Below, one piece after another: positions 509 through 16,987 of a DNA stretch of 64,000 nt. The stretch is taken from IMG/VR virus record IMGVR_UViG_3300027779_002128, positions 1-64,000 of that record; one strand, written 5' to 3'. The notes below the pieces were generated by a model. The model made no database searches and was not told the origin of the DNA. It saw only the letters and a program-made list of their open reading frames with translations. Origin of the DNA: a virus. The position numbers and the translations under genes were made by a program. Position 1 is the stretch's first letter. Each line of letters opens with the position of its first letter.

Positions 509-1009
509 CTAGCTAATTAACTCGCCCGTAATCTGCATTGTGTAGCGAGGGAGTATGCCTATGTTACTTGCCGCGTGGGGAACGTCTGCACTCCATAGTG
601 CGTAGTCGCCGGCTTTCCAATTGGTAACTGCTTTGCCGTTGAACTCTAAGTAGTGTCCTGGGTGCCAGTCTTCCATGAACACTAATGCTCTGTATGTGTT
701 GTCTCTTGTTACGCCGAATACACGTTCGTACGTTTCAAAGTGATCTGTGTGCGTAGGCATTATGTCTAGAGTATCCATTTTATAGAATACATAGCCTGTG
801 TTAGTTAAGCCTATCTTGTGTGCTACATAGTCTACCCAGTCTGGCATTGGATTACGACTGTCATACATGCCGCCGGAGAATGATGCATGATAGTAGCCTT
901 TGGCTTGCCATGTGTGTATCTCAGAGTCTTTAATAGGTTGCTTAGTGTAAGCGAAGTGAGTATGTTCGTCTGACCACACAGGAGTTATGTGTCCTTGCCT
1001 GGCTATCAT
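509..1009 (-). CDS. 2-oxoglutarate/Fe(II) oxygenase-like protein
   Basis: Probable non-haem iron, 2-oxoglutarate-dependent oxygenase of the double-stranded beta-helix fold. Counting from a TTG start at 1042 (177 residues), it shows an HTD motif (H98, D100), a distal histidine in DVPHAASN (H156) and an arginine ten residues later (R166). These fit the HxD...H iron triad and the co-substrate-binding Arg. The ATG at 1009 is preferred because it forms an ATGA overlap with the stop of the amidinotransferase gene and has AAGGT upstream, giving 166 residues; the TTG would instead give a 37-base overlap. It is the last gene of the minus-strand block. Its substrate is unknown. Coupling to the amidinotransferase suggests that both act on the same small molecule or residue, which is inference. 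Confidence 0.6.
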   Translation of the reverse strand: MIARQGHITPVWSDEHTHFAYTKQPIKDSEIHTWQAKGYYHASFSGGMYDSRNPMPDWVDYVAHKIGLTNTGYVFYKMDTLDIMPTHTDHFETYERVFGVTRDNTYRALVFMEDWHPGHYLEFNGKAVTNWKAGDYALWSADVPHAASNIGILPRYTMQITGELIS

Positions 1010-1974
1010 GATGCTGACCTTATAGTGTCTAGTGTTACGCAATGGAAGCCACCACCTAGTGTGCGTTGATGTCTAGTAGGCAACATAGCACAATCAATGC
1101 CATGCTTCTCTAGTTCTATTCGCAGACTGTGTTGGTTTTCTTCTAATGCTACTAACGTAGGGCTTATGCTTAACATGTTCATGTTAATCCACACACTAGC
1201 ATTGTTGTAGTCGCCGTAGTAACCTATGTCTGTTGGCTCTGGGCACATTATGTAATCCCAATGTCTAAATGGTTCAGGCAGTTGGTTTACGTCTTTAATT
1301 CTTGTAGGGTTAAGCAACATCAAGCCTTCTCGTAGGAAAGCAACTGTGCTGTCTATGTGCATGTAACTGTACACACCTTCTAGTGGGTGTATGTTTAATC
1401 CTGTGTGTTTTTGTAACCAGTCAGCGCCTGCACGGTTTCCTGAGTTACTTACTAGGTACAGTATATCATCATTAGCACGAATACAGTTAGCCGCATCGAA
1501 ACTTGGTGCTACTTCTGTTAATGCTAGAGTGTCTGGGTCGCCTAAACACTTGGTATTGTATAAGTCATCAGCATAGTATCTAGGTGCTTCAGTAATAGTT
1601 GGGAAGTGATGTGCTAGTGGATGATAGTTACATGCTCTTGCTCTAATAGGCATAGGGGTTGCTATAGCATGTTCGCCATGCAAGAACACTATATCCCTAG
1701 GACAGTAATCATAATACTTAACAACTTGATCGGAATCAAACGGTCTAAGTACTTCTATACTCTCACCTTCAAGAAACTTAACAAATGTTTCTAAGTCTTC
1801 GTCTGCTTCTTGCGTTACAATGTCTGGGTAAGGACCTGTGTGTATTGTGTTAGCATCTTCTACGTCTGCATAGTTGACCAATCGCATACTTAAATCTAAG
1901 TCCGGTACTCTTGCACCTCTTGCCCTTCCTACTATAACCTGTCTAAGTGTGTCCCACTCATTTTTTGCGTACAT
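1006..1974 (-). CDS. Glycine amidinotransferase-like enzyme (GATM family)
   Basis: A 322-residue member of the guanidino-group-modifying (pentein) superfamily, closest by eye to L-arginine:glycine amidinotransferase. The matching blocks are PSFDAANCIRA with Asp160, YMHIDSTV with His206 and Asp208, and LGGGFHCVTLD with Cys312. These correspond to the Asp-His-Cys catalytic set of human AGAT (D254, H303, C407). The family moves an amidino group from arginine to an amine through a Cys-amidino intermediate. In bacteria such enzymes occur in secondary metabolism. Here the gene lies directly after the B12-type radical SAM gene and overlaps the oxygenase gene by ATGA. The acceptor is unknown. Family assignment is confident; glycine as acceptor is not shown. 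Confidence 0.8.
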   Translation of the reverse strand: MYAKNEWDTLRQVIVGRARGARVPDLDLSMRLVNYADVEDANTIHTGPYPDIVTQEADEDLETFVKFLEGESIEVLRPFDSDQVVKYYDYCPRDIVFLHGEHAIATPMPIRARACNYHPLAHHFPTITEAPRYYADDLYNTKCLGDPDTLALTEVAPSFDAANCIRANDDILYLVSNSGNRAGADWLQKHTGLNIHPLEGVYSYMHIDSTVAFLREGLMLLNPTRIKDVNQLPEPFRHWDYIMCPEPTDIGYYGDYNNASVWINMNMLSISPTLVALEENQHSLRIELEKHGIDCAMLPTRHQRTLGGGFHCVTLDTIRSAS

Positions 1975-4257
1975 TTATTCCTCTAGCTTTACGGTAATCA
2001 TATCAGCATCAATGGCTTTGAAGTTTGCCGCTTGAGCTAAATGCTTGTTGTCTGCGTTAACACCGGCTGTAATAACATCTGGTACTGCTACGTTATGCGA
2101 ACCTCGTTCCCACTTGCCTTTGCCTTTGTAGTTGTGTTCAAAACTAAAGTCTATAGTTTTGTTTAAAAATGATTCTTCTTCTAGTAGCTCACCAAAGTCT
2201 GTTTGGCTTCTACCCTCAGTCTTGCTCCACTCAGGCTTTGCAAGTTTTCTAGCACGTTTGGCTGTGTTTGATTGCATACGTGAGTAGTCCTGTGCATAGA
2301 ACGGACCTTTACGTCCACCTTCACTCATAGGCTTCCTATCATCGAATGGATTGTCTACTTGGTTGTATTTGTATTTAAAGTTTGCTTTCCATGTACCGTC
2401 ATCAGCAATAACAAATTTATATGTACCGTGGAACTGATCTGCTGGACCAAACTGACTGCCGAATTCTTTGCTGTCTATGTCAGGGTTAAAGTCTACTGTA
2501 CATCTATAGCCGCCTCTGGTTAGCCACATCATTCTCAAGAAAGGCCATATCTCATTTACTAGACTGTCTGCGAATGGTGATATGTCTGGTTTAATTATGT
2601 TGTAGTCAAAGTCCTCATACTCAATCTCATGATATACATTTGGTTTATTAAGTCTAATAACATAGTGTTCTCTAGCTAGGTTGTGCCTAACAGGGTAACC
2701 AAACGGTACGTCAGTTGCGCCTACCATAAAGTCTATGAATGTATGGAACAGTTTAACCCTGTGCATAACATGTATGCCTGCAATAGTAAAGTCATTACTG
2801 ATCCAATGGTTCTGATACTTGTGATAACTAATGTTCCACTTATGAGGATTCTGTCCTACAATAGTTTCAGGACCTACTGCCATACCTACACCAGCACCAA
2901 TGTTGTTGATGTTCATGTTTCTGTTACGCCAAAGGAATGTCATTGTTCTTGCAAAGTCGTGATGTTGTTCTGTAGGAAAGCCTACGATCCAATTAGTCGC
3001 GGCATACACCCCATGCTTCTTACCTGACTTAAAGTTGTCTTCCATCTCTTTAATAGTTACGCCTTTAGCCATGTCGTCTAATACTTTCTGTGAACCTGAC
3101 TCGCAACCGTAGTTAAGCATAATACAACCACCGGCGGCTAAGTCCTTGAAGTAGTCATCGTCCATGCGTCCGTCACAACGAGCATACCCAGTCCATCTCA
3201 TCTTAATGTTCTTTTCTCTGAGTGCAATAGCAAATGCTCTAAGTTCATTTATGTTACCGTTAATCAAACTATCAATGAACCACATAATGTCTGCACCCTT
3301 CTCATAGTACAAGTATTCTGCTTCACGCAACACATCTATAGCAAGACGTTGTCTGTATTTCCAAAAGTGTGTTTCTTCGCAGAACGTACACTTAGCAGTA
3401 CAACCACGTGAGAACTCTGAGGTTACTCCGTTGGGTACTTTGTATTCGTTAAAGTCTAAACCTTCGTAGTCAGGCATAGGCATATCATTAATATTGATAC
3501 GCTCCATTTCTTCCTGTGTAATCTTATACATAGGACCTCGGTCTATACCATCTTCTTGATCTTGAAGTATAGCAAGTATAGCCGCTTCGCCTTCTCCTGT
3601 GCATATATAATCGTAGTAAGGTTGTATGTCAAACCAATCCTTCTGTACGTTAGATCCGCCTACAGCAATTTTAATGTGTGGCGCTCTCTTCTTAAGTTCT
3701 TTACACATCCACTTAGTTGGTTCTTCTGATATGTAGTATTGACTAAAGCCTACTACTTCGGGATTCTCTTCTATAATATGTTGCAAGCCTTCTTCGAGGA
3801 TAGGCTCTAGCAAAGGATGTATATCATTCATGTATGTTTCACCTAGCCAATGCCAACTGGCAGAAGGATCCCATAACCTAAAAGGAATTAGCTTTTCAGG
3901 TTGCCAAATGTTTTGATGTGCGTTGTAGGCTTTAACATTTAAGTCAAGTATGCTTGTTTCGTACCCAGCACTCTTACAAACGCCACTTAGTCTTGCTAAG
4001 TTAAACGGTGGAAACTCTGGTGCCCACTCAGGACACATAACTAATATTAATTTTGTTGTTCTTGTTTTGTAGTCTACATAAACTGACTTTGTGTTCTTCT
4101 GCTGTACCTTCTTAGAAAATGGTGAAATCATATCCATCATCTGTTGATGTCGTTGATCCTCCACACTCATCTCAGGCTTTTCGTACCTGTCTTCATCAGC
4201 CTTGTCTACTGCAATGTTAGTAAGATTAAAATCTACATGTTTTTTATGTTCGTCCAT
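1975..4257 (-). CDS. B12-binding-domain-type radical SAM protein
   Basis: A 760-residue radical SAM enzyme. Residues about 68-230 look like the Rossmann-type cobalamin-binding domain found in this class (PPFNLARLSGVCKSAGYET, then EVVGFSQYY, IAVGGSNVQ and CTGEGEAAI), although the classic DxHxxG cobalamin ligand is not visible. The 4Fe-4S motif is SRGCTAKCTFC with Cys286, Cys290 and Cys293, followed by a TIM-barrel region. A long C-terminal extension of about 300 residues is rich in charged and aromatic residues and is not recognised. Relatives carry out methylation, cyclisation or rearrangement. It sits between the amidinotransferase gene (1 base apart) and the 539-residue transferase-like gene. 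Its substrate is unknown. Confidence 0.75.
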   Translation of the reverse strand: MDEHKKHVDFNLTNIAVDKADEDRYEKPEMSVEDQRHQQMMDMISPFSKKVQQKNTKSVYVDYKTRTTKLILVMCPEWAPEFPPFNLARLSGVCKSAGYETSILDLNVKAYNAHQNIWQPEKLIPFRLWDPSASWHWLGETYMNDIHPLLEPILEEGLQHIIEENPEVVGFSQYYISEEPTKWMCKELKKRAPHIKIAVGGSNVQKDWFDIQPYYDYICTGEGEAAILAILQDQEDGIDRGPMYKITQEEMERININDMPMPDYEGLDFNEYKVPNGVTSEFSRGCTAKCTFCEETHFWKYRQRLAIDVLREAEYLYYEKGADIMWFIDSLINGNINELRAFAIALREKNIKMRWTGYARCDGRMDDDYFKDLAAGGCIMLNYGCESGSQKVLDDMAKGVTIKEMEDNFKSGKKHGVYAATNWIVGFPTEQHHDFARTMTFLWRNRNMNINNIGAGVGMAVGPETIVGQNPHKWNISYHKYQNHWISNDFTIAGIHVMHRVKLFHTFIDFMVGATDVPFGYPVRHNLAREHYVIRLNKPNVYHEIEYEDFDYNIIKPDISPFADSLVNEIWPFLRMMWLTRGGYRCTVDFNPDIDSKEFGSQFGPADQFHGTYKFVIADDGTWKANFKYKYNQVDNPFDDRKPMSEGGRKGPFYAQDYSRMQSNTAKRARKLAKPEWSKTEGRSQTDFGELLEEESFLNKTIDFSFEHNYKGKGKWERGSHNVAVPDVITAGVNADNKHLAQAANFKAIDADMITVKLEE

Positions 4258-4268
4258 ATCCCTCTACT

Positions 4269-5888
4269 TTAAAACTCAGCTACTAAATCGTAGTCTGTGG
4301 TGTTTAATTTTTTCAGTGACAAGAAATGATTATAGTTATAATCTATAATCGGTTTCAGTTTCACTTGTAGTTCTAGCCACTCATCGTCTGTTAAATTTGT
4401 TAAACGTAATATTTCTTGCTCTATTGCTACATGCCTATCGTTGTCATCTTTTATAGTATCGTAATCTTCATTAAACAATCCTTCGAATGTTTTATATCCA
4501 ACTACTCTCAAATACTTTAATGTTCCAGGCAATGCCGCAACAATAAATGGATGTCTATGAGCAATAGGCTTATAAACTTTCTCACTTATAAACACACCAT
4601 CTGTATGTATACAGCAACACGGTCTAGTTCCTGTATCTATTAAATTATGATAAAAGTTTGTTTCGTTAACAACACTAAAATAACTGTTATCAAAGTAACC
4701 AGCATCTTCAACGTTAATATCTACAGGATTATCTCTTCCACTAGTTCTATTTAGCACTAAAGGCAACCTATTCCAGAGTTTATAGATATTTTCTATGTAC
4801 GGATCATCTCTAAATTCTTTATCAATATTCTTATTATTTTTTATGTCCCACGAGCTTCTTGTAGAAAGGACTATGTCACTGTTCTTTATATCAAAACTTA
4901 CATAACTTTTCTCGATTAGATCGTGCTCAAATAAGAATCCTACCATACGAGCTCGTTGCCATCTAGGCATTCTATTAAAGCAAAGTAACTTCTTTTCTCG
5001 TTTGCCTATCTTAAACTCTTTCCCTGCCCATACTGGGTGCTTAGTAAAGTCTAATGTTCTATTACCTTCGAATCCAGCCTCCATGGAAGTCTTAGTTACG
5101 TTCTCAAAACGCATACCACTAATAATTTTCATCTTAGGTTGTATACCCATCAGCTGACACATGTGATTATAACTTGCTGTGCCGTCCAATGAACTAGTTA
5201 ACATGAACCATGTATTGCTTGGCATGTAATCAAGTTGGTCAATAAACCTATGTGCTTTGTGAATACTCTGCGGTTGTAAGGCTTCATCAGCATTAGAGAA
5301 AATAACTTTGTCTTTTCCTCTACCTAATGCTTTTTCTATTGCACTTAGTACTTCCATGTGGTTCACTCTATCGATTGCGTGGTCTTCATTAGCACCTGCG
5401 TATACTGGATATATTCTATGCCAGTACTCTACTAGCTCAGGATGTACGCCTAGTATTTGTTCTTGGAACATTCGATCAGCATGTTTACTAAAAGGTTTCA
5501 TAAAGGTTGCTGTTGTACCTTGTCTGTCTTGTTGTTCCCACCTGTCGTTTTGCCAGAAGTAACATTCGTAGGCCCGACTTGCTTCACGAATCCAAGACGC
5601 TATATGAGGAGCTGGTAGCAACTTAGGTAATACAAACACAGTAGACCATGATTTGTATTGGCGCGGATTCTTAGCGTCTAATATTAATACAACGTTTGGA
5701 CCCATTAGATTATTCTGTATGCGTGAGTTGGCGTTACTGTAGTCTTCCATAGTATTAAATTTTGCACCTAGCTTATGTAATGCATCTTTGAGAGGAAGGC
5801 TATCGCTATTCCACTCGCCCTCTACACAAATACACTCGCCGTGCTGACTAATGAAGCCTGCTTGCTCTGTTGCTTTTATATATTCCAT
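4269..5888 (-). CDS. Probable glycosyltransferase, SEK-KPI-PF family (copy 1)
   Basis: A 539-residue protein whose last 120 residues carry a block shared with three other genes here: an acidic ETN about 30 residues before SEKVYKPIAHRHPF (near residue 430), then GYKTF and an acidic NEDYD. The spacing of the upstream Glu and the EK resembles the nucleotide-sugar-binding end of GT10 fucosyltransferases (FENS...TEK...A...PVV), so a GT-B-type sugar transferase is likely. The N-terminal part is unlike its paralogues. It may be a second domain, since HRIYPVYAGANE near residue 160 and FSNADEALQPQ near 200 look GT-A or Rossmann-like. It overlaps the SGNH-like gene by 13 bases. Donor and acceptor are unknown. 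Confidence 0.5.
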   Translation of the reverse strand: MEYIKATEQAGFISQHGECICVEGEWNSDSLPLKDALHKLGAKFNTMEDYSNANSRIQNNLMGPNVVLILDAKNPRQYKSWSTVFVLPKLLPAPHIASWIREASRAYECYFWQNDRWEQQDRQGTTATFMKPFSKHADRMFQEQILGVHPELVEYWHRIYPVYAGANEDHAIDRVNHMEVLSAIEKALGRGKDKVIFSNADEALQPQSIHKAHRFIDQLDYMPSNTWFMLTSSLDGTASYNHMCQLMGIQPKMKIISGMRFENVTKTSMEAGFEGNRTLDFTKHPVWAGKEFKIGKREKKLLCFNRMPRWQRARMVGFLFEHDLIEKSYVSFDIKNSDIVLSTRSSWDIKNNKNIDKEFRDDPYIENIYKLWNRLPLVLNRTSGRDNPVDINVEDAGYFDNSYFSVVNETNFYHNLIDTGTRPCCCIHTDGVFISEKVYKPIAHRHPFIVAALPGTLKYLRVVGYKTFEGLFNEDYDTIKDDNDRHVAIEQEILRLTNLTDDEWLELQVKLKPIIDYNYNHFLSLKKLNTTDYDLVAEF

Positions 5889-6682
5889 TGGTCACCGTGC
5901 TCGTCCCAGGGCCACTGTGGGTCATCGAACACTTCTTGTAATGTTGTTTGTTTCATTATGTCGTCACTAAAGTCGGCGTATTGCTTACTAGCATCTCCTA
6001 ATGGAAAGCCAATGTGTACTAACCAATCTCTGTACACAGGCGCACTAGGGTGATAGTCTGCAAACTCACTGCCGTCATGTGTACTTTTATATGTGTAATG
6101 TACCGGCCACTTGCATTCGTTATAAGTCCATAAACACGGCTCTACAATGTCTAAGTCGTTGTACATATTCTGTATGCTATGTGTTTCTTCGTCTGAGAAG
6201 CCTGCATAGTATCCTTGACCGTTTAAACCTAATCCCATTAAGCCTACACTATCAAACTGTTCTTGCTTTAGTGATTGTGTTACTGTGTCTATAATTGCAC
6301 AATCACGCATAGTCATACCTTGCACATCTACATGTTCCTTAAAGTACTCTTCGCTGAACACATCGTCTCTACCAAATACATTACCTGGAGTACGCCATTG
6401 TCCTTTAATCCACTTGTCTTCTCTGTAGAAAGTACTCCAACAGATAACAACTAAGTCTTTGTTTGTTAAGGACATTTTTCTTTTTGCTTGACTAAGCATT
6501 GTTTGTATGTAACTGTTTCCTGCACCACACTTACCTAAGTTTGTAAACTCTGCATTAGGCATATCCTGTGCAAGTAAGTCGGCCCATGTTGCCCAGCGGT
6601 ACCTAGTAAAACTACAGCCAAGTGTTACTAATCTATCGTACTTAGACAAGTCTATATCAGCAATGTTTGTATTGTAGTACAT
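5876..6682 (-). CDS. SGNH/GDSL-type hydrolase-like protein
   Basis: A 268-residue protein with a block I nucleophile elbow LGCSFT (Ser24) after a beta strand, a GAGNSYI block (residues 53-59) and a C-terminal ADYHPS (Asp209, His211). These suit the SGNH esterase fold. Such enzymes remove or add O-acetyl groups on sugars or proteins. Its place between two putative glycosyltransferase genes (13-base overlap downstream, TAATG-like junction upstream) fits glycan acylation or deacylation. No signal peptide is visible, so cytoplasmic action is likely. The Asp-His spacing is shorter than the common DxxH, so catalytic competence is not certain. Confidence 0.6.
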   Translation of the reverse strand: MYYNTNIADIDLSKYDRLVTLGCSFTRYRWATWADLLAQDMPNAEFTNLGKCGAGNSYIQTMLSQAKRKMSLTNKDLVVICWSTFYREDKWIKGQWRTPGNVFGRDDVFSEEYFKEHVDVQGMTMRDCAIIDTVTQSLKQEQFDSVGLMGLGLNGQGYYAGFSDEETHSIQNMYNDLDIVEPCLWTYNECKWPVHYTYKSTHDGSEFADYHPSAPVYRDWLVHIGFPLGDASKQYADFSDDIMKQTTLQEVFDDPQWPWDEHGDQWNI

Positions 6683-8196
6683 TAAAAGTCTCTGTTCATT
6701 TGTGCATTTATTATAGTTTCTTGCAATGTTTCTTTATTATCAGGACTAGCCCAACTAACAGCTTGCAACGGCTTATTTAAATCTGATTTCTCTATGTGAG
6801 TTATTCTACCTAGCCTACTACGTTCAGCCATTCTCTTGTAGTTATGCTGTAAGATTGGCCACATCTTAATATACAATGCATGGCATTCATCTAAACTTAA
6901 CCCAGAGATGTAATCCATTATTTCTATTAGCTTTTCTGTTCTAACTAAGTGATCTTCTTCTAAGTCATATCCCTCGTCCCAGAAGTCTCCGAATGTTTTG
7001 TAACCTAACTTATGTAAGTATTGTATTGTATATGGAGGAGCAATTAATAAGAACGGTGTCTTAAATTGCATTGACTGTAATACTTTTTCTGATATGTTTG
7101 CAGTAGGTTGTCCGTAACGACTCTCGATACATATATCTACAAACGTTTCCCTGTACAATGGTTCCAGTGGTAAGTGTGTAGGGTTAACTACAACAGGGTT
7201 ACCAATGTTATCAAAGTCTGTGTTCTCTGGATAATGGTGCCCAGCACATTCATGTGCAAACGTTGAGCTTCTTGCACCAACATCATACGTTAGTGGAACA
7301 ACTTTGTTTAACATGTCTATGCCTTCTTTTAAGTTAGCAATAAACTTAGGCTCTCTATCAGGCTCTTGCTCTCCAGCACCGTTAACATTCATCCACGGGG
7401 TATCTAGTAACGTTTCAAGTGGCGTTTCGAAGAACCATATAATGTTACTGTTAATACCTTTAGTCTCGTACTGTTTTAGTATAGCACACATGATTGCTCT
7501 AATAGAAGTAAACCTCCAGCATGTGCAAACAAAATGTTTCTTGAAACTACGCTTAACAGTTATGTCTGCGTTGTTGTACATTATTAATTCGTTTAAGAAC
7601 GGATCGTCACATAGCAGTTTCATTTGCTTGGCATAAGAACTACATGCTTTTTCTACGCCATAGTCACCTGTGTGTACTATTACATTATACAATTTATTCT
7701 GTCCAGCAAAGTAACCAATAGTATCTAGTTCGGTTGAACGTACTCTATTGTGTGTGCCTGTTCCGTTTACATTCTCTCTAGGAAACTCTGTATAGAATCC
7801 GTAATTATAAGCAGACCCCCAGTAACCAGCAAGAGGATCATTTTCATAGTACATGCATATTGGTTCGTACAAAAATATGTGTAAGCCTTTTTTGTTTAGT
7901 AGCTCTACAGTACTAGCGCCAAGTTTTAATTCTATTAACTGTTTGATCTCACCGTTGGCTTGATAAAACAAACACGGAGCATCAATATCCTCATCTTTGT
8001 TCCAGCGTCTAAACTCTGTCCAAGTTCTAATACGTGGAATATCTCGTATAGTTGCTTTCATAATGTTTGGGTGACTGATTGCACCCTCAGGAAAATTATG
8101 ATATGCTAAACTACTTGTTACTTCTTCGTAGTTGATACTTAGCTCATCAGTAACTGCTTTGTTAGTAACTGTACTGGTTTTATCTAACTGTGCCAT
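6682..8196 (-). CDS. Probable glycosyltransferase, SEK-KPI-PF family (copy 2)
   Basis: A 504-residue protein with the shared C-terminal block: CIESRYGQP, then NISEKVLQSMQFKTPF (about residues 362-380), HKLGYKTF and EGYDLEED. It is the most diverged of the four copies, because KPI has become LQSM. The middle part has HFVCTCWRFTSIRA and a long variable region with IIWFFETPLETLL. It starts at a TAATG junction with the 409-residue paralogue, so three of the four family members are almost adjacent. A soluble GT-B-like sugar transferase is inferred from the motif resemblance to fucosyltransferase-type enzymes. Donor and acceptor are unknown. Confidence 0.5.
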   Translation of the reverse strand: MAQLDKTSTVTNKAVTDELSINYEEVTSSLAYHNFPEGAISHPNIMKATIRDIPRIRTWTEFRRWNKDEDIDAPCLFYQANGEIKQLIELKLGASTVELLNKKGLHIFLYEPICMYYENDPLAGYWGSAYNYGFYTEFPRENVNGTGTHNRVRSTELDTIGYFAGQNKLYNVIVHTGDYGVEKACSSYAKQMKLLCDDPFLNELIMYNNADITVKRSFKKHFVCTCWRFTSIRAIMCAILKQYETKGINSNIIWFFETPLETLLDTPWMNVNGAGEQEPDREPKFIANLKEGIDMLNKVVPLTYDVGARSSTFAHECAGHHYPENTDFDNIGNPVVVNPTHLPLEPLYRETFVDICIESRYGQPTANISEKVLQSMQFKTPFLLIAPPYTIQYLHKLGYKTFGDFWDEGYDLEEDHLVRTEKLIEIMDYISGLSLDECHALYIKMWPILQHNYKRMAERSRLGRITHIEKSDLNKPLQAVSWASPDNKETLQETIINAQMNRDF

Positions 8197-9425
8197 TAAT
8201 AATTTACCTTATGTGCAAAGTCATATTTATGTTTGCTTTGTAAGGTCCTAAAGTTTTTGTCGCAAATTTCTTTTACGTTATCTAACCATGTATAAAGTTC
8301 TTCGCCTTGTAATGCATCTAAGCGTTTTGTTTCTTCTATAATCATTTGCATACGTTTAATATCGTCTTGCTCAGCATCGTAACTTTCATTGATATAAGGA
8401 GCAAACGATTTGTACCCTATGCTTTTGAGAGCTGACATACTTCCGCATGGTGCTATTAATATAAACGGGTGCTTAAAACTTATAGGCTTAAATACTTTCT
8501 CACTAAAAAATATACCGTGCTCTTCATCACTTTCGAAGTAATGGGTTTCACTTACTAAACTAAAATATGTTTCAGCATACATCCAATCATCTGATTCAAT
8601 AAAGTCTGCTCTGTTTGTTACAAGCTCTTTGTGGTCAATATACTTAGGCGGCATGTTTACTAGCTCGTCCTTTATTGACATTAACTGTTTTGTAAGATTA
8701 ATGTTTTTAGTATCTTTGCATAGTTGTAATAGAACAGGGAACATCTCAGTCCAGTCTCGATCATCGTCACTAGGACCAAAGCTAATTAGACCACTGTCTA
8801 TTAATCCTTCTGCTAATAGCATAGAAACAAACAATGGTCTATGTGTGCGCCAACGTCTATTAAAGTTTAAAAATGATGTTGCATATTCTTTTTTCTCGAG
8901 TGTAGGCTTAAACTTAAGACGTTTATGACCTAGTAAATACTCTAGAGTATTGTTCGCACCCTTCTCAAAGTCTAAGATAATCTTTATTTTAATAGAGTCT
9001 TGGTTGTCTCTAGTAGCAACTATCTCTTGATTAAGTTTGTTTGCTTCAAAGGCACCTGTCATTAGTATAATCTTATGTGCAGGTATGCTGTAACGGTCCA
9101 CTAGACCGCTGTAAACGTCTTGTACGCAACTTAAGAAGGCTTCGTGACTATTTGCCACAACTAAGTAAAAATTGCTATTAGAACGCTTTAAACGAGCTAA
9201 AACAGTAGAGTCAAGTAACTCTTCTAGTTGTATTAATCCTAACGCAGGACTCTTACGAAACTCTATAATGTAGTAATCGTTTTCAGACTCGCTCCAATCA
9301 TGCATAAATGTAATCATAGGAGTATCACGCTCTTCAGACCATAATTTAATAACTTCGCCAAGTCTAGTAAGTTCTACATCAAAGAACGTTACCTTCGCTT
9401 CATGGTTAATCAATGCCAACTGCAA
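8196..9425 (-). CDS. Probable glycosyltransferase, SEK-KPI-PF family (copy 3)
   Basis: A 409-residue protein, nearly the minimal form of the family. FSLVSETHYF is followed by GIFFSEKVFKPISFKHPF (about residues 303-320), KSIGYKSF, NESYDAEQDD and a C-terminal helical tail. An upstream FLNFNRRWRTHRP (about residues 186-198) matches CFNRMPRWQRARM of copy 1 and may be the phosphate-contacting region. It overlaps the last 20 bases of the SPASM-like radical SAM gene and runs into copy 2 by TAATG, so the three genes are probably translationally coupled. The role in glycan assembly is inferred. Confidence 0.5.
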   Translation of the reverse strand: MQLALINHEAKVTFFDVELTRLGEVIKLWSEERDTPMITFMHDWSESENDYYIIEFRKSPALGLIQLEELLDSTVLARLKRSNSNFYLVVANSHEAFLSCVQDVYSGLVDRYSIPAHKIILMTGAFEANKLNQEIVATRDNQDSIKIKIILDFEKGANNTLEYLLGHKRLKFKPTLEKKEYATSFLNFNRRWRTHRPLFVSMLLAEGLIDSGLISFGPSDDDRDWTEMFPVLLQLCKDTKNINLTKQLMSIKDELVNMPPKYIDHKELVTNRADFIESDDWMYAETYFSLVSETHYFESDEEHGIFFSEKVFKPISFKHPFILIAPCGSMSALKSIGYKSFAPYINESYDAEQDDIKRMQMIIEETKRLDALQGEELYTWLDNVKEICDKNFRTLQSKHKYDFAHKVNY

Positions 9426-10407
9426 TTACCTCCGTGTCTGCATTATGTCTCTTAGGAATAATAATATCCGTTCCACACATGCAATGATACTTGGTGCATG
9501 TAATTGTTCTTGGCCCTACTCTGCTTATGTCATCTAGTATGTGGCCTACTTGTCCACTTAGTCCGCAACTTGCCAGACTCACTTCACCTACAGGAGATAT
9601 GAATACACAGTCACCTATGTCGCAACTCCAACCTGTAAAGAAGTTTTGCCTTTGAACAATAACATCGTTACTGTTGCAAACTGCTTCAGTGCCATCTTCG
9701 GTTAGTGTATAACTTGCAGTACCGCTCTCATGTTTGAAAGGATTTTCAATAGTACTTTCTTGTTCAGTTGAATGCTGTTCTATAAATTCTGTTTTCTTAA
9801 GATCCTTATATTCCCATGGACCAGCATTCACACTTAGCTCGTCGTACAGCGGAGTCCACTCTATAAAGTAGTTAGGCATAACTTTTTTTAAGTGCTCGCC
9901 AAATGCTACACATTCCCAGAACCTTTCATCGTGTAATAATATTTTTGAACTAAGGTAGTTTAGTTTGTCACATAAGTATATACTTGTTTCTGCGTACTGT
10001 TCTTTCTTTGATTGCTCAACATGGAAACTTGCAACAACATCATCAAACAAGTGTAAGTGTTTCTCCCACCATGCTCTTGGCCTACTTAAATTTGTGTTAA
10101 TAGCAATAGTGCATTCGGGTAGTACATTTTTTAAATGTTCACAGATAGGAATAAAGTTTTTCCATGCTGTTGGTTCACCGCCACTAAAGAAAAACTTAAA
10201 GTGCTTATAGTCTTGTGTCTTATACTTTGCAATAATCTTATCTAAGTTTTCTATATATTTTTCTAGGTTACCTTCGTTAGGACTATCTCCAATCCAGTTG
10301 CCAGGGTTGCAGTATGTACAACTAAAGTTACAGAAATTGTTTACCTGCCAGGTTACACTAAGGTACTTCTCAGGTGCTGAGATCTCTACTAGTTTCTTTG
10401 ACACCAT
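9406..10407 (-). CDS. Radical SAM protein with SPASM-like C-terminus
   Basis: A 333-residue radical SAM enzyme. The cluster-binding motif is NNFCNFSCTYC with Cys26, Cys30 and Cys33, followed by FFFSGGEPTAW, the GGE SAM-binding motif. Towards the C-terminus, WSCDIGDCVFISPVGEV, LASCGL and CTKYHCMCG form a cysteine-rich SPASM/twitch-like region that would hold auxiliary iron-sulfur clusters. Its layout differs from the four neighbours, whose extra cysteines are N-terminal. It overlaps the upstream radical SAM gene by 19 bases. SPASM enzymes often modify peptides, but some act on sugars or other small molecules; no precursor peptide gene is visible nearby. Confidence 0.8.
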   Translation of the reverse strand: MVSKKLVEISAPEKYLSVTWQVNNFCNFSCTYCNPGNWIGDSPNEGNLEKYIENLDKIIAKYKTQDYKHFKFFFSGGEPTAWKNFIPICEHLKNVLPECTIAINTNLSRPRAWWEKHLHLFDDVVASFHVEQSKKEQYAETSIYLCDKLNYLSSKILLHDERFWECVAFGEHLKKVMPNYFIEWTPLYDELSVNAGPWEYKDLKKTEFIEQHSTEQESTIENPFKHESGTASYTLTEDGTEAVCNSNDVIVQRQNFFTGWSCDIGDCVFISPVGEVSLASCGLSGQVGHILDDISRVGPRTITCTKYHCMCGTDIIIPKRHNADTEVIAVGID

Positions 10408-11672
10408 TCGTAAACCTCATGTAATTGTGGGATGACGCTAATCATATTTTCATCTCGGATCATATCATATTCATCGTTGTTATCGAAAAACTCTAAAAGT
10501 TTTTCTTTGTTTTCTTTTCCTGTCCACAGCGTTTGGACTAACATCTTAAAGTCATTCCTTAAGTCTGTATCTTCCTCTGCATGGAACTTGCCTATGTAAT
10601 GTTTTAGTTCTTTTATTATTTCTAGTCTAATAGCATTAGGTAATATTTGTATTGCCGCAAAGTCTGGGTATGTTAATACATTAACACGTGGTGGCAGTTC
10701 TCTACTTACAAACCCATTCTCATACATCCAATCATACATCTCACCATAGTTAAATATATTCCATATGCTTATAGTTGGAGTAATACCTACTTTAATATGC
10801 GGTGCTTTCTCTTTAATTGTAAGCATGTTGTTTTGTACTTTGTTCCAATTAAATCCCTTACGAATAAGTTCTCCTTGCTCACCAATTGAATCGATACTAG
10901 CCCATATCTCCATCTTAGGAAAATGGCTCCACAGTTCAATTAAGTCTCTGCCCTTATGGGATATCTTACTCATGTTAGTTGTATAGTTTAACTGTATGTT
11001 CTTCGCTAAGTCGTTTTCAATCCAGTAGTCTAAGCACTCATAGTGTTCAGGTGTTACTAGAATCTCGCCACCAGCAAAGTAACATTCCTCTACATCATCT
11101 AAGTAAGGTCTTAACTTATCCATGAACGAACCATCTGCGTTATTAGATATTAATGTTTTTGCTTTCTTATCATCTTCATGACCGAAACGTGTAATGAATA
11201 CATGCTCTTCAATCATCTTTAATTTTTCTTCACCATGCAAGTTTGAACAAGCAGGCCCACAACTACGACACTTAAAGTTACAGATATTACTAAAACGTAT
11301 GTCCATGTACTTTAACTTAAACTCGTCTATGCTACCATCACTGTTAGTTGACTCTATCATGTCTATATTATCTTTACCACGAACCATATTTTGACTTTGT
11401 CTTAAGGTCCATGTACCGTTATCTTCTAGTTCATAGCACCTAGAACATGCTTCATACGGTTCGTCATTGAGCATAGCATTACGCATTTTCTTATACTCAT
11501 CGGAGTTCATCATATCTAAAATGGACTCGCCTTCTTTTAGTTCACTAACCGGAGCATCACTATCAGCAACACAACACGGCATAACTTGTTTGTTTGGCCA
11601 TGCGTGGAAATGTATCCACGGTAGAACACAAAAATGTTTGCTGTCTTTTACTAGTTGTTTTGCTGTTTTCAT
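10389..11672 (-). CDS. Twitch-type radical SAM protein (1 of 4 in tandem)
   Basis: A 427-residue protein. The N-terminal part has HFCVLPWIHFHAWP, MPCC (Cys33, Cys34) and ACSRC (Cys76, Cys79), an auxiliary-cluster layout typical of twitch/SPASM-like proteins. The radical SAM core follows: FSNICNFKCRSC with Cys131, Cys135 and Cys138, CYFAGGEILVTPEHY and LNYTTN. It is clearly paralogous to the next two upstream genes. The start codon forms TAATG with the preceding gene. Similar proteins of unknown function are known in marine phages and bacteria. The substrate is unknown. Confidence 0.8.
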   Translation of the reverse strand: MKTAKQLVKDSKHFCVLPWIHFHAWPNKQVMPCCVADSDAPVSELKEGESILDMMNSDEYKKMRNAMLNDEPYEACSRCYELEDNGTWTLRQSQNMVRGKDNIDMIESTNSDGSIDEFKLKYMDIRFSNICNFKCRSCGPACSNLHGEEKLKMIEEHVFITRFGHEDDKKAKTLISNNADGSFMDKLRPYLDDVEECYFAGGEILVTPEHYECLDYWIENDLAKNIQLNYTTNMSKISHKGRDLIELWSHFPKMEIWASIDSIGEQGELIRKGFNWNKVQNNMLTIKEKAPHIKVGITPTISIWNIFNYGEMYDWMYENGFVSRELPPRVNVLTYPDFAAIQILPNAIRLEIIKELKHYIGKFHAEEDTDLRNDFKMLVQTLWTGKENKEKLLEFFDNNDEYDMIRDENMISVIPQLHEVYEWCQRN

Positions 11673-12916
11673 TATTTTCCCTGTAACCTTCTTAACTCAG
11701 GAAATGTTTTAAAGAAGTCTTCGCCTCTTATATCATCTAACCTAAATGTATTCTTGAAGAAGTCTTCCTTACATTCTTCCCAATTATCTTCACCATCAGC
11801 AAAGTCGGCCGCACTATTAGTTATCCGATCTATGCATCCTTTGTTACCTTTAAAGAAACTTCTTACATTCTCTCCAGCAACCTTCTTCAACGCACTAGGC
11901 ATTGCTTTTGCACTATAGTACTTAGGATTATCACATAAGTATAATGTGTGGTACCAATCATGATCAAAGTCTACTAGTCCTTGTAGTCTCATGTATTCAT
12001 AAAACTCAGGTATTGTCGCATAGTTCATTATACTGAATACTGTATTGATTTGGAAGTTCACATAATCAAGTGCTTTAAATGTTTTTAAGTTCTCTTCAAC
12101 CTTGCCCCAATTAGTTCCTGACCGCATTAGTTCAGCACGGTCTCCATAATGGTCAACTGAACAACTTAATTCTATGTTGTCAAAGTGTTTCCAAAGTTCT
12201 AATATATCATACTGCTTGTAGCTCAGTGTACTAGCATTTGTATTGTAACGCAATGTTACATCAGTCCTGCCTTTGCGTATCATGTCCTCTAGTATAACAT
12301 AATGCTCAGGAGTAATCAACGGTTCGCCACCAGCGAAGTAAGCCAGGTCTATATGTTCAACTTGATCTAATATCTCTTCTAGTACAGTTCCTTCGTTATC
12401 GTCAACGTGTATAATAATAGGTCCATCTGGATTATAAGTTTTCTTATCCTCCAATGCCCATTGCGAACTAAACTCTGTTCCACAACTACGACATTTAAAG
12501 TTACATATATTACTAAACCTTATATCAAAGTATTTCATTTTAAGTTCGTCTACATGTCCATCGGTGTGCGTCATTGCCAATGATTCATCGAATGAGTCAG
12601 AGAAGTTATCCATGCTGTATGTACGGAAGCTATGTGGGCCAGCCTTTTCATGACTATAACAAAAGTTACATATCTCAGACTTCTTACCTGCTAACATATT
12701 TAATCGTAAGTCTTTCATGTAGTCTGTGTTGAATGCTTCTTTAAGGCTCATGTCTCTAGCATTACCAATTGGATTAGTATAGTCGTTACTACAACAAGGG
12801 TATATGTCTCCTTTAGGTGTTGCATTCAAGTGTACCCAAGGGAACATACAAAACGTTTTACTATCTGTAAGCAATGCTTCTTTGTCTAAGTCCTGTAGTT
12901 TTATGTAATCACTCAT
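11672..12916 (-). CDS. Twitch-type radical SAM protein (2 of 4 in tandem)
   Basis: A 414-residue paralogue of its neighbours. N-terminal cysteines are in TFCMFPWVHLNATP, YPCC (Cys41, Cys42) and ICNFC (Cys83, Cys86). The radical SAM motif is FSNICNFKCRSC with Cys138, Cys142 and Cys145. AYFAGGEPLITPEHY carries the GGE motif, followed by LRYNTNAST. Eight bases overlap the next upstream gene and the stop couples to the downstream start by TAATG. Conservation of every cluster ligand suggests an active enzyme rather than a decaying copy. Confidence 0.8.
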   Translation of the reverse strand: MSDYIKLQDLDKEALLTDSKTFCMFPWVHLNATPKGDIYPCCSNDYTNPIGNARDMSLKEAFNTDYMKDLRLNMLAGKKSEICNFCYSHEKAGPHSFRTYSMDNFSDSFDESLAMTHTDGHVDELKMKYFDIRFSNICNFKCRSCGTEFSSQWALEDKKTYNPDGPIIIHVDDNEGTVLEEILDQVEHIDLAYFAGGEPLITPEHYVILEDMIRKGRTDVTLRYNTNASTLSYKQYDILELWKHFDNIELSCSVDHYGDRAELMRSGTNWGKVEENLKTFKALDYVNFQINTVFSIMNYATIPEFYEYMRLQGLVDFDHDWYHTLYLCDNPKYYSAKAMPSALKKVAGENVRSFFKGNKGCIDRITNSAADFADGEDNWEECKEDFFKNTFRLDDIRGEDFFKTFPELRRLQGK

Positions 12917-14192
12917 ATAAATTTCTCAGTTCAGGAAACACTTCTACAAAACTTTCATTCCTTAATTTATCTAGCCTAGTAGTTTCTGCAACAAACTCAG
13001 CCCTAACATTATTAAAATCAGTACCAGAAGAGTCAACCAAATCAGGAAACGCAATTATATTTGATATTGTGTTTTTAAAATCATACTGTCTCTTTTTGTA
13101 TGTTAATATTAGTCTGTCATTACTGCTAACATATTTTACTATATTTTCTATGCCTTGTCTACCTTTATCTTTTAATTCTTGCGGTAAGTTAAACACACTA
13201 ATCCATTCAGGATTAGATACAGGATTCAGTTGCCAGTCGCCTCCAGGCATAAGTCCTGTGCTTAACATTTTCTTATAAAATTCTTCTAGTGTAGTATAGT
13301 TTAACATACTAACAGTTGAACTAATTTGTAAATTAACATTAGGCTCTAGTAATAATGTTTTAATATTTGCTTCTATATCCTTCCACTTAGTTCCACTTCT
13401 AATATATTCTGCTCTGTCGTCACAGTGATCAATACTACTGTAAATATTTACAGGATGATCAAACTGTTCCCACAGCTCTAATACGTTATACTTTTTAAAC
13501 TTTAGTTTACTTAGGTTAGTGTTGTAACTTAGTTTAACATCAGCTCTACCTTGCTTAATTAATTCTTCGAGCATCTTGTAATGGTAGTCGTCAACTAACG
13601 GCTCCCCACCAGCAAAGTAACATTCTTCCATGTACGGTATGTGCTCTAGCAACTCGTCAAATATATCTTTGTTACGTTCAGGCATCATATCTGTTGTTAA
13701 GTTTATGCCTTGCTTCTTATCTTCGGCTTCCCACAAACTACTATAGCCAGAGTTACAAGAACGGCACTTCATATTACATACGTGGCTAAGTCTAAAGTCA
13801 AAATATTTCATTTCAAAATCTGCTAAGTGACCGTCTCTTGCTGTACGCCTTAAGACTTTCTTTTTCCATTTGCCATACTTCTCATTTGCAGTATTCCTAA
13901 AACTATATGTGCCAGTGCCACTGTCTTCTATCTTATGACAGCCATTACATACTTCGTGCCTCTTACCTGCTATCATGTCTAGTCGTAATTGTTTCATGAA
14001 GTCTGAATTAACCATTTCTTCAATTGACAAATTCTTTCTCCCTATAGAATGAGAATACTTCATGTTGCCAATACAACATGGCAATGGCTTACCATCAGGA
14101 GTTACATGCATATGAACAAATGGTAACATGCAAAATGCATTGTTGTCCTTTGAATGTGGAATGTAGTTATCTATGTGATTCTTTTTTGGCAT
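12909..14192 (-). CDS. Twitch-type radical SAM protein (3 of 4 in tandem)
   Basis: A 427-residue paralogue. It has AFCMLPFVHMHVTPDG, LPCC (Cys39, Cys40), VCNGC (Cys82, Cys85), LSHVCNMKCRSC (Cys139, Cys143, Cys146), CYFAGGEPLVDDYHY and LSYNTNLS. The insertion between the cysteine pair and the core (RNTANEKYGKWKKK) is basic. It starts at a TAATG junction with the 480-residue member. The tandem order and shared layout indicate duplication followed by divergence, perhaps with each enzyme acting at a different site of the same substrate (inference). Confidence 0.8.
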   Translation of the reverse strand: MPKKNHIDNYIPHSKDNNAFCMLPFVHMHVTPDGKPLPCCIGNMKYSHSIGRKNLSIEEMVNSDFMKQLRLDMIAGKRHEVCNGCHKIEDSGTGTYSFRNTANEKYGKWKKKVLRRTARDGHLADFEMKYFDFRLSHVCNMKCRSCNSGYSSLWEAEDKKQGINLTTDMMPERNKDIFDELLEHIPYMEECYFAGGEPLVDDYHYKMLEELIKQGRADVKLSYNTNLSKLKFKKYNVLELWEQFDHPVNIYSSIDHCDDRAEYIRSGTKWKDIEANIKTLLLEPNVNLQISSTVSMLNYTTLEEFYKKMLSTGLMPGGDWQLNPVSNPEWISVFNLPQELKDKGRQGIENIVKYVSSNDRLILTYKKRQYDFKNTISNIIAFPDLVDSSGTDFNNVRAEFVAETTRLDKLRNESFVEVFPELRNLYE

Positions 14193-15634
14193 TACTTTAC
14201 TTCTACTAATTGTATATCGCTGGCATTAAGTTCACCGCACATGTTATAAAAGCCTTCCATCTCTGGGAAAGTCTCTAGGAAGTTTGTGTCTCTACGTCTG
14301 TCGTACTCGTTAAACCATTTGTAGAAATCAATTCTACCTCTGCGTATTTTCTCATCGTCGTACGGTGTGGTAGCAAAATAATCTCTTACTCGTCTAAAAC
14401 GTTCATACTCTAATTCACTAAACATTGTTCTATCATCTTCAACAAGGTTGTCCTTAACAAAAGATAAGATGTCATCGAAGTAAGGTAAGAACTCTTCTTT
14501 AGGTAATATGTGCATGTCATACTGCAACGGTTCTTTGAGGTACGGTGTATCAAATCTAATCTTTCTTACGTTAGGTTCACTGCCTAAGTTATTTGGTATA
14601 ATGTCTTCGTACGTCTTGCGCCACTCTAATACTTTTTTCAAGTACTCTTTAAATGTTGTAACACTTAGCACATTGAATGTTACCATGTGTGTTATATGAC
14701 TTTTAACGCCACGCAAGTATATGTCTTGATTCTTTTCCCAAAGTTCAATGTCTAAACCTGTTCTAATATATTCAGCACGTTTGCCCCATGTATCAATGGA
14801 ACTAAACATTTTAAAGCCACGTATTTTATTGTTCTCTGTTAGTTCTTTAACTACTTCTACTAATCTCTCTACACGTCTGCTAGTGTATCCTAAGTTAGTG
14901 TTAACGTTAATTTCTATATTTGGCTTTGGGTTCTCACTAAGTTCTTCGAACAGTCTCCAAGTAGTTTTATGCAAGATCGGTTCGCCGCCTGTTATCCTAA
15001 GTATGTTTAATGTTTCGCTTACCTCAGGCCACCACTTCCACCATGCTTCGACGTACGGAGAATCCTCATCGTAAATATCAAACCAGTCTATGTCAGCTTG
15101 GTGATTGCTAACCATATTGTACGGACCATGCTTCTTAATCTCTGCTCTATATAAGCTACTATGCATTGGATGACAGTACCCACACTTAAAGTTACACTCG
15201 TTACTGAATGCAATTTCTACATACTCTGGATTAATTTTATAGTCAGGTGGATTATATATAATCTCATTTAATCTATCTTCTGTGTATATGCTACTGTTAC
15301 GAATATGCCTGTCCGAAACATGCTTCTCTTCGCCTTCAGCTTTGTTCTCATCCATCTCTTCTACGTTCCAGCAGTACTGACAGCCACTTGGCTTATCACC
15401 GTTGAGCATTTGAATACGTTCATCAATTTTCTGCGGTGTGTTATGTAGTACACTTGGGTCGTACTTTAATTCTTGTAAAGGTATGTCATGTGGCTTAGGG
15501 TGGTAGCAACTATGCGTCTGCCCTCTATGTAAGTAAATAGTTGTGTGGTGCCACTTAGCCAGACAGAATGTCTCACTAATCTCATTAGTAAGCAGTTCGT
15601 CTATTTCTTCTATTCGCCCTATTCTATCACTCAT
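14192..15634 (-). CDS. Twitch-type radical SAM protein (4 of 4, most diverged)
   Basis: A 480-residue first gene of the radical SAM run. The N-terminal cysteines are in TFCLAKWHHTTIYL, HSCYH (Cys43) and GCQYC (Cys85, Cys88), so the CC pair of the paralogues is reduced to one cysteine. The core motif is FSNECNFKCGYC (Cys147, Cys151, Cys154), then LRITGGEPILHKTTW and INVNTNLGY. It is longer than the others because of insertions around the GGE motif and before the C-terminus. The gene begins right after a UUCG hairpin (15647-15670) and a TATAAT box, so its expression may be set separately from the dehydrogenase gene upstream. Confidence 0.8.
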   Translation of the reverse strand: MSDRIGRIEEIDELLTNEISETFCLAKWHHTTIYLHRGQTHSCYHPKPHDIPLQELKYDPSVLHNTPQKIDERIQMLNGDKPSGCQYCWNVEEMDENKAEGEEKHVSDRHIRNSSIYTEDRLNEIIYNPPDYKINPEYVEIAFSNECNFKCGYCHPMHSSLYRAEIKKHGPYNMVSNHQADIDWFDIYDEDSPYVEAWWKWWPEVSETLNILRITGGEPILHKTTWRLFEELSENPKPNIEINVNTNLGYTSRRVERLVEVVKELTENNKIRGFKMFSSIDTWGKRAEYIRTGLDIELWEKNQDIYLRGVKSHITHMVTFNVLSVTTFKEYLKKVLEWRKTYEDIIPNNLGSEPNVRKIRFDTPYLKEPLQYDMHILPKEEFLPYFDDILSFVKDNLVEDDRTMFSELEYERFRRVRDYFATTPYDDEKIRRGRIDFYKWFNEYDRRRDTNFLETFPEMEGFYNMCGELNASDIQLVEVK

Positions 15635-15676: not shown

Positions 15677-16987
15677 TTATCCCTGTTTAATTCTCGTATT
15701 ACCGTAATGCACAACCTTCACGCCTTCGATATTAGGAATCTGTCTCCACGGGTCTAACACAATACTACCGACTGGAAACTGTAACTCAGTTCCGTTGCCT
15801 GTAGAAACAGACAATGCTGTGTCGCAATCTGTTCTATTATGTTTGCCGTTGTACCATCCTGGTACGTTATCTAGTTGGTCACCATAAGTGATACCTGGAT
15901 TGTGTGCTAGTAAGTATACTGCTGGCTCACTAAGTTTATCGTCTAACGGCACGTCACCAGTTTTCTCATCATAGTAATGTAATTCAAATCCTGCTTTTTG
16001 TATGTAGTGTCCTACTAGCATACTGGCCGAACCTGCATCATATTCTACTAAAGGCTTGTAAGCCTTACCGACTATAATGATTGGCAATCCGTTTACTATA
16101 TCACCTGCTAACTCCATTAAACGTTTTGCCATGTTCTCTGCTTGTACTTCTCGTGAAAGCATCACAGCATCAAACAAGTCGTAACCTAACCCTAAGTTCT
16201 CAGCCATCCACCGTAGTGCGATATTATCTCTTGGGTGACAAGCACCACCATCGCCCATACCCGGCTTCATATATCCAGGTCCCATGATACGTCTATCACT
16301 TGAAGCTAATGCATCACAAACAACTTCCGCGTTTATGTTACCTTGCTTTTCTGCAACGTCTTGAATCATATTTACTAAGGATACTTTTGCTGATATAAAT
16401 GTATTGTAAAATACTTTAATGCACTCACATTCATCCCAGGTACCTATAATATACCTTGGATCGTTCTGCATTATTGTTTTATAAAAGTCTACAAGTTGTT
16501 TTGCATCACCTGTTTCACTTCCATCTGCGGTTCCAATCATTACCATTTCTGGATTAACCATATCCCATTTTACTGTACCCATTGCAATTAAGTATGGGTT
16601 GTAAATAAAACGAGCATTAGTTAAGAGTGGAATAAACTCACGTCTAACAGTACCTGGTAGTACTGTGCTAATAAGGACTATTAGTTGTTCATTGGTTGCT
16701 ACCGCATTTACTTTCCTAAGGATATCTTTAACTATACTGTAATCGAAATCCTTATTAGGTAAATGGCTGGTAGGTGCTTTTCCATCATACTGTGGGTCAT
16801 GCGGTGTAGGCACAGCAACAAAGACAATTTCTTGTCCTCTTACTGCATCTTCCACTGTATCAACCATTGCAAAGTTTTCAGGCTCTACAGGGTTAATGTC
16901 AAACCCAACAACATCATGTACTTCAGCGACCATTTCGGCGCAGGCTTGTCCTAACTTGCCAACTCCGATAAATCCGACTGAGGCCAT
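15677..16987 (-). CDS. UDP-glucose/GDP-mannose dehydrogenase family protein
   Basis: A 436-residue NAD-dependent nucleotide-sugar dehydrogenase that would oxidise a hexose to a uronic acid by two steps. The N-terminal Rossmann fold has GFIGVGKLG (residues 5-13) and LISTVLPGTVRREF. The central domain has FYNTFISAKVSLVNM, and the active site is GMGDGGACHPRDN with the catalytic cysteine Cys250. The C-terminal domain begins near IIIVGKAYKP. The usual GGxCFPKD is here GGACHPRD, a conservative departure. AGGAGATAAA precedes the ATG. A GATAAATA octamer lies 41 bases upstream, so a late promoter may drive it. It probably supplies uronic acid to the transferases of this block. Confidence 0.85.
   Translation of the reverse strand: MASVGFIGVGKLGQACAEMVAEVHDVVGFDINPVEPENFAMVDTVEDAVRGQEIVFVAVPTPHDPQYDGKAPTSHLPNKDFDYSIVKDILRKVNAVATNEQLIVLISTVLPGTVRREFIPLLTNARFIYNPYLIAMGTVKWDMVNPEMVMIGTADGSETGDAKQLVDFYKTIMQNDPRYIIGTWDECECIKVFYNTFISAKVSLVNMIQDVAEKQGNINAEVVCDALASSDRRIMGPGYMKPGMGDGGACHPRDNIALRWMAENLGLGYDLFDAVMLSREVQAENMAKRLMELAGDIVNGLPIIIVGKAYKPLVEYDAGSASMLVGHYIQKAGFELHYYDEKTGDVPLDDKLSEPAVYLLAHNPGITYGDQLDNVPGWYNGKHNRTDCDTALSVSTGNGTELQFPVGSIVLDPWRQIPNIEGVKVVHYGNTRIKQG

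What the first reader, a model, noticed from the sequence alone, without database searches (positions are those of the whole stretch)
509..1974. Amidinotransferase plus 2OG oxygenase, a coupled pair at the end of the block
GATM-like catalytic residues (Asp160, His206, Cys312) and an HxD...H...R oxygenase overlap by ATGA. Together they could install and then hydroxylate a guanidino group on a phage product. Amidinotransferases are rarely noted in phages, and the link to a glycan or radical SAM locus is a new combination to me.
Basis: partly seen in the sequence, partly recalled or inferred. Interest (0 to 1): 0.75.

Follow-up and report, generated by a model that had tools for sequence, protein, structure and literature searches.

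The report
Phage guanidine-transferase and oxygenase gene pair
A large phage carries an enzyme of the family that moves a guanidine-forming group from arginine onto an amine, side by side with an iron-dependent oxygenase, and the same two genes travel together, usually with an aminotransferase and sugar-transferase genes, in hundreds of wild phages, so they probably build an unusual guanidine-bearing sugar.

Summary
Window 1006-1974(-) encodes a 322-aa amidinotransferase (AT) with Asp160/His206/Cys312. Window 509-1009(-) encodes a 166-aa 2OG/Fe(II) oxygenase with an invariant H87xD89...H145...R155. The two overlap by ATGA. The AT is closest to StrB1, the inosamine-phosphate amidinotransferase (PDB 1BWD; E 1.3e-69, model TM 0.93), rather than to GATM.

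The pair is a conserved phage module. At least 418 viral-contig relatives of the AT exist. In 52 non-redundant AT loci, 46 also encode the oxygenase, and it abuts the AT in 36 (18 in each gene order). A scan seeded only with the oxygenase found the AT in 74 of 75 loci and a short DegT aminotransferase in 67 of 75. In at least 13 loci the oxygenase is fused to a protein of the putative glycosyltransferase family also present in this window. The phage ATs form one clade (100/100).

Best reading (about 0.5): aminotransferase makes an amine, AT guanidinylates it, oxygenase tailors it, glycosyltransferases attach it. Product, substrate and order of steps are inferred.

I found no description of the DegT-AT-2OG module.

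The parts
1006..1974 (-). Amidinotransferase (StrB1/GATM family), 322 aa; catalytic D160, H206, C312; arginine-site D94, R113, D208, H311
   Evidence: phmmer to 1BWD StrB1 E 1.3e-69; AlphaFold2 pLDDT 93.9; Foldseek to 1BWD TM 0.93/0.87, E 8.6e-36; residues invariant across 29 phage homologues
509..1009 (-). 2OG/Fe(II) oxygenase, 166 aa, ATG start at 1009; H87xD89, H145, R155
   Evidence: Invariant triad and R in 39 homologues; AlphaFold2 pLDDT 90.5; VIA Z 14.0 to 2OG oxygenase PiuC, 12.9 SnoN, 12.7 P4H
1006..1009 (-). ATGA stop/start overlap of the two genes
1975..4257 (-). B12-binding radical SAM protein, 760 aa, directly upstream of the amidinotransferase, also in its closest relatives
   Evidence: Pfam B12-binding 2e-12 and Radical_SAM 7.6e-16; synteny in L004-L007, L011, L014, L016
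4269..5888 (-). 'GTx' family protein, putative glycosyltransferase (no Pfam or PDB sequence match)
   Evidence: GTx profile E 1.9e-97; family found fused to the 2OG domain in other phages; negative
5876..6682 (-). SGNH/GDSL-like hydrolase (weak), recurrent neighbour
   Evidence: Pfam Lipase_GDSL_2 0.013, below cut-off; cluster 23
6682..8196 (-). 'GTx' family protein, putative glycosyltransferase
   Evidence: GTx profile E 1.3e-98
8196..9425 (-). 'GTx' family protein, putative glycosyltransferase
   Evidence: GTx profile E 3.2e-93
9406..15634 (-). Five radical SAM / N-terminal SPASM ('twitch') proteins
   Evidence: Pfam; NF033640 E 3.2e-109 for 11672-12916
15677..16987 (-). Nucleotide-sugar dehydrogenase
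   Evidence: Pfam UDPG_MGDP_dh 2.7e-18; TIGR03026 3.3e-45
17028..17819 (-). NeuB-like sialic/pseudaminic acid synthase homologue
   Evidence: Pfam NeuB 1.1e-15

Best explanation
The two genes are the core of a mobile phage module (short DegT aminotransferase + amidinotransferase + 2OG oxygenase + glycosyltransferase) that makes and attaches a guanidino-bearing amino sugar or aminocyclitol. Shown by sequence, model or statistics: the protein family, the active-site residues, the fold and the gene coupling. Inferred: DegT aminates a keto-sugar; the AT transfers the amidino group of arginine, via Cys312, onto that amine (ornithine released); the 2OG oxygenase hydroxylates (or epimerises/desaturates) this sugar or its acceptor; and the GTx or GT25-type enzymes transfer it to a phage or host glycan. 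In this window the module sits downstream, on the same strand, of the baseplate and tail-fibre genes, so a virion (tail-fibre) target is somewhat favoured over the host envelope.
For: AT is StrB1-like in sequence and model with all catalytic residues. StrB1 itself amidinates an aminocyclitol made by a DegT enzyme (established knowledge of the streptomycin pathway), and a bacterial relative at about 40% identity lies beside a DegT aminotransferase and a 'streptomycin biosynthesis protein'. Oxygenase-only seeding finds AT in 74/75 and DegT in 67/75 loci. The short DegT keeps the PLP Asp84 and Lys108, invariant in 69 sequences, and matches Pfam DegT and, weakly, LegC/PseC/DesI sugar aminotransferases. 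A GTx- or GT25-type gene lies within four genes of the AT in 46/52 non-redundant loci. 2OG-GTx fusions occur in at least 13 loci. The window block also has a nucleotide-sugar dehydrogenase and NeuB and follows tail-fibre and baseplate genes. Pocket residues S203/M205 differ from StrB1 (A224/T226); a small residue at 203 (Asn300 in GATM, from memory) would allow an acceptor larger than glycine.
Against: No substrate is shown. GTx has no Pfam or PDB match, so its glycosyltransferase role rests on context. DegT is not in this 75.6-kb record; it may lie beyond the contig end, as in relatives L005, L006, L007, L011 and L016. The usual NDP-sugar 4,6-dehydratase that would supply a keto-sugar was not shown to recur. 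In L008-L018 the AT-2OG-GTx set lies beside replication-type genes rather than tail genes.
Confidence: 0.5

Rival explanations
1. Small-molecule route: the AT guanidinylates glycine, lysine, a polyamine or another free amine and the oxygenase hydroxylates the product, giving a soluble compound (host-metabolism gene or bioactive guanidine), not a glycan.
For: The family includes GATM (glycine) and HsvA (polyamine), both matched. M205 at the position before the catalytic His matches HsvA, Bradyrhizobium and Pantoea ATs. A gene annotated as a guanidine N-hydroxylase sits beside an AT in Rahnella. KEGG-based viromics names such genes glycine amidinotransferase.
Against: DegT plus glycosyltransferases are constant neighbours and the 2OG domain fuses to GTx. 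Sequence profile score is far higher for StrB1 (279 bits) than for HsvA (161) or GATM (158).
Confidence: 0.25
2. The oxygenase acts on a protein (for example hydroxylating Asp/Lys/Pro of a tail fibre) to create the glycan attachment site, while the AT separately modifies the sugar; they cooperate but not on one substrate.
For: 18 of 38 family members weakly match the Asp/Asn hydroxylase Pfam model, best E 1e-4. Structural neighbours include prolyl hydroxylases. GT25-type enzymes, the collagen hydroxylysine kind (own knowledge), recur. The module lies near tail genes in this window.
Against: Structural neighbours also include the antibiotic tailoring enzymes SnoN/SnoK at similar Z. The Pfam scores are at or below cut-off and the window protein has no such match. 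No acceptor motif was identified.
Confidence: 0.2
3. The AT takes part in DNA base modification (amidine on 7-deazaguanine, as in archaeosine-type phage DNA).
For: Phage DNA with an amidine base exists, and Campylobacter phages carry both radical-SAM clusters and an AT.
Against: Archaeosine is made by ArcS/Gat-QueC/QueF-L enzymes (own knowledge), not by GATM/StrB-type proteins. Only weak partial QueE-like radical-SAM hits appear in the window, and the neighbours are sugar genes.
Confidence: 0.03

Closest known systems
StrB1, inosamine-phosphate amidinotransferase (PDB 1BWD)
   Same: Fold (TM 0.93), 41% identity in the structural alignment, catalytic D/H/C and arginine-site residues; in bacteria a DegT aminotransferase is a neighbour
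   Different: Phage clade is separate and fully supported (100/100); acceptor-pocket residues S203/M205 instead of A/T; partnered with a 2OG oxygenase and phage glycosyltransferases
GATM, SxtG, HsvA amidinotransferases
   Same: Same superfamily and catalytic residues
   Different: Score over 100 bits lower than StrB1; known acceptors are glycine, a saxitoxin intermediate and polyamines
Campylobacter phage CP220/CPt10 cluster (PMC2853527)
   Same: Amidinotransferase among radical-SAM and sugar-transferase-like genes in a phage; exchangeable module
   Different: AT only about 28% identical; neighbour gene gp085 shows no 2OG-oxygenase motif
Synechococcus phage S-SCSM2R genes 305-310
   Same: Same module: DegT ('AHBA synthase'), radical SAM, 2OG oxygenase, AT, glycosyltransferases
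   Different: Order 2OG-AT instead of AT-2OG; AT 59% and 2OG 28% identical
Bluensidine/streptidine pathways (own knowledge)
   Same: DegT amination then StrB-type guanidinylation; bluensidine also carries a carbamoyl group, and 36 of the AT loci carry a NodU-type carbamoyltransferase
   Different: No inositol dehydrogenase or kinase identified near the phage genes; carbamoyltransferase not seen in this window

Membership tests
Amidinotransferase (GATM/StrB1) family | Whole-length homology to characterised members | tested here: met
   1BWD E 1.3e-69 over 4-320; HsvA, SxtG, GATM also matched; model TM 0.93. No curated Pfam or NCBIfam model reached its cut-off
Amidinotransferase (GATM/StrB1) family | Cys-His-Asp catalytic set and arginine-binding residues | tested here: met
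   D94, R113, D160, H206, D208, H311, C312 align with StrB1 D108, R127, D179, H227, D229, H331, C332 and are invariant in phage sequences
Amidinotransferase (GATM/StrB1) family | Transfers amidino group from arginine to an amine (not hydrolysis) | not testable with these tools
   Needs enzyme assay
Inosamine-phosphate amidinotransferase (StrB1 proper) | Acceptor is scyllo-inosamine phosphate; inositol pathway genes nearby | tested here: inconclusive
   DegT found in related loci but no inositol dehydrogenase/kinase identified; pocket residues differ
Creatine pathway glycine amidinotransferase (GATM) | Closest to GATM, with glycine-restricting Asn300/Met302 | tested here: not met
   Closest to StrB1; equivalent positions are S203/M205 (GATM residue roles from memory)
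2OG/Fe(II) oxygenase superfamily | HxD...H iron triad plus Arg about ten residues on, in a double-stranded beta-helix | tested here: met
   H87, D89, H145, R155 invariant in 39 sequences; fold Z 14.0 to PiuC
Aspartyl/asparaginyl hydroxylase subfamily (PF05118) | Match above the curated cut-off | tested here: inconclusive
   18 of 38 members match weakly; L041 member E 0.0013, 19.0 bits against a cut-off of 22.6; the window member has no PF05118 match

The most novel reading that the evidence does not exclude
Phages carry a widespread, previously undescribed cassette that makes guanidinylated (in some lineages also carbamoylated, bluensidine-like) sugars and attaches them to tail fibres or other virion proteins: a new positively charged class of virus-made glycan.
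Probability: 0.27. Interest if true: 0.8.

Novelty: new variant of a known kind. Interest (0 to 1): 0.52.

Why it matters
Guanidino sugars are known mainly from aminoglycoside antibiotics. A phage-specific enzyme clade present in at least 418 viral contigs, locked to an oxygenase and an aminotransferase, suggests that phages evolved their own guanidino-sugar chemistry. It gives a testable hypothesis for what the many unexplained aminotransferase, oxygenase and glycosyltransferase genes of large phages jointly make, and a source of new amidinotransferase specificities. A cationic glycan on a virion could affect adsorption, stability or recognition by host defences.

Tried and rejected
Pfam, PHROGs and NCBIfam on the AT and 2OG gave no named hit above cut-off; direct PDB sequence search and models were needed. 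A PDB profile search with the 2OG family alone gave only chance-level hits, so the fold search was used. The GTx family gave nothing in PDB or Pfam or in the phage collection, so 'glycosyltransferase' stays putative. DegT search of the own record was empty. The GTDB contig scan with the AT found only two short partial matches, which shows no close bacterial relative among those patterns, not absence. CP220 gp085 upstream of its AT was checked as a possible 2OG oxygenase and rejected. A scan with one DegT protein returned only itself. A scan with the CP220 AT found only CP220 itself and one relative. Literature searches combining amidinotransferase with guanidino/glycosyltransferase/carbamoyltransferase or O-antigen returned no paper. 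The DNA-modification reading was considered and found unlikely. A phylum-wide bacterial search could not be centred.

Full report
What was checked. The overlap is ATGA. The window is the first 64 kb of a 75,631-base virus record, so 'the end of the block' is also the end of the contig: bases 1-508 hold no long open frame. The rest of the record carries a T4-type late sigma factor, gp46/gp47-like nuclease and baseplate genes. The gp46-like protein is 52% identical to that of large Pseudomonas phages such as PA5oct. The record is therefore most likely a fragment of a large myophage.

The amidinotransferase. phmmer against the PDB gives StrB1 (1BWD) at E 1.3e-69, then HsvA, SxtG and human GATM. 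With a profile of 29 phage homologues the bit scores are 279, 161, 150 and 158 respectively. The AlphaFold2 model (pLDDT 93.9) superposes on 1BWD with TM 0.93/0.87 at 41% identity. D94, R113, D160, H206, D208, H311 and C312 align with StrB1 D108, R127, D179, H227, D229, H331 and C332, and are invariant in the phage family. It is therefore an amidinotransferase-family protein with an intact active site; the activity itself is not shown. Curated Pfam and NCBIfam models miss it, and PHROGs knows it only as phrog_25854 of unknown function. In a maximum-likelihood tree 26 phage sequences form one group (100/100) apart from six bacterial plasmid relatives and CP220. The best plasmid relatives found are about 40% identical, and a GTDB contig scan gave no close one.

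The oxygenase. No library names it, but H87, D89, H145 and R155 are invariant in 39 sequences. The model (pLDDT 90.5) is a standard 2OG oxygenase: VIA Z 14.0 to PiuC, 12.9 to SnoN, 12.7 to P4H. Related members weakly match the Asp/Asn hydroxylase model. The substrate class cannot be read from this.

The pair is a module. An AT-seeded scan of viral contigs gave 80 loci, and a profile scan counts 418 relatives. Among 52 non-redundant loci (AT under 95% identical), 46 encode the same oxygenase and 42 a short DegT aminotransferase within 8 kb. In 36 the oxygenase and AT abut or overlap, 18 in each order. The reverse test, seeding only with the oxygenase, gave 75 loci not already held under another id: 74 encode the AT, 67 DegT and 66 both. 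These loci are those nearest to the window's oxygenase, are partly redundant and partly overlap contigs of the first scan; that is a limit. The short DegT (about 195 aa) keeps the PLP aspartate and lysine in all 69 sequences. In at least 13 loci the oxygenase domain is the N-terminus of a protein whose C-terminus is the GTx family, three members of which lie at 4269-9425 of this window. GTx has no database match, so its glycosyltransferase nature is inferred. In another lineage the neighbours are GT25-type enzymes (PHROG glucosyltransferase) and a NodU-type carbamoyltransferase. A GTx or GT25-type gene lies within four genes of the AT in 46 of 52 loci.

Mechanism. The logic recalls streptidine biosynthesis: a DegT aminotransferase makes an amine on a keto-sugar or cyclitol and a StrB-type enzyme guanidinylates it. 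A Streptomyces plasmid relative sits in exactly such a setting. In the phage module an oxygenase and glycosyltransferases follow. I think a guanidino sugar is made and attached to a glycan (0.5). In this window the genes end a same-strand run that starts with baseplate and tail-fibre genes, which favours the virion as target, but other loci lie beside replication-type genes. Rivals are a soluble guanidino metabolite and a protein-hydroxylating oxygenase.

What is known. CP220 and CPt10 (2010) were described with a cluster of five radical-SAM genes and a putative glycine amidinotransferase, proposed as an exchangeable module (PMC2853527). S-SCSM2R is annotated with the whole set. A green-sulfur-bacteria virus study lists a glycine amidinotransferase (PMC8226683).

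Noticed in passing
window 33138-54701 (-): A single open frame of 7187 aa lies between baseplate-type and tail-fibre-type genes; among the largest phage proteins I know of. It was not analysed.
   Followed up: no
window 9406-15634 (-): Five consecutive radical-SAM/SPASM proteins, at least three with the SPASM-like domain at the N-terminus; one matches NCBIfam NF033640 'twitch' family at 3e-109.
   Followed up: partly
L118, L130, L131, L134, L142, L143, L147, L149, L154, L157; L020, L021, L025: The 2OG domain is fused to the N-terminus of a GTx-family protein.
   Followed up: yes
window 4269-9425 and 18819-20021 (-): A family of putative glycosyltransferases (conserved E...SEK...PF motif) with no Pfam, PHROG or PDB match, recurrent in these phages.
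   Followed up: partly
L044:8728-10260 and 35 other loci: NodU-type carbamoyltransferase in 36 AT loci; with the AT this recalls bluensidine (guanidino plus carbamoyl) chemistry.
   Followed up: partly
L052:8920-9507 and 68 homologues: Half-length (about 195 aa) DegT-type aminotransferase that keeps the PLP Asp and Lys.
   Followed up: yes
L060:1358-2560: PHROG families named 'ferrochelatase' (phrog_3531, phrog_2954) match the N-terminal half of a tandem 2OG-oxygenase-like protein, so that PHROG name may be a misannotation.
   Followed up: no
window 157-206: Perfect 21-nt direct repeat TTTTGTACACTATAAGCAACA, two copies 29 nt apart, in the non-coding contig end.
   Followed up: no
L165:6528-9011: Rahnella conjugative plasmid has an AT homologue next to a GntA-annotated guanidine N-hydroxylase; its catalytic-region residues deviate (H206 kept, D208 is G, T314 is S).
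   Followed up: no
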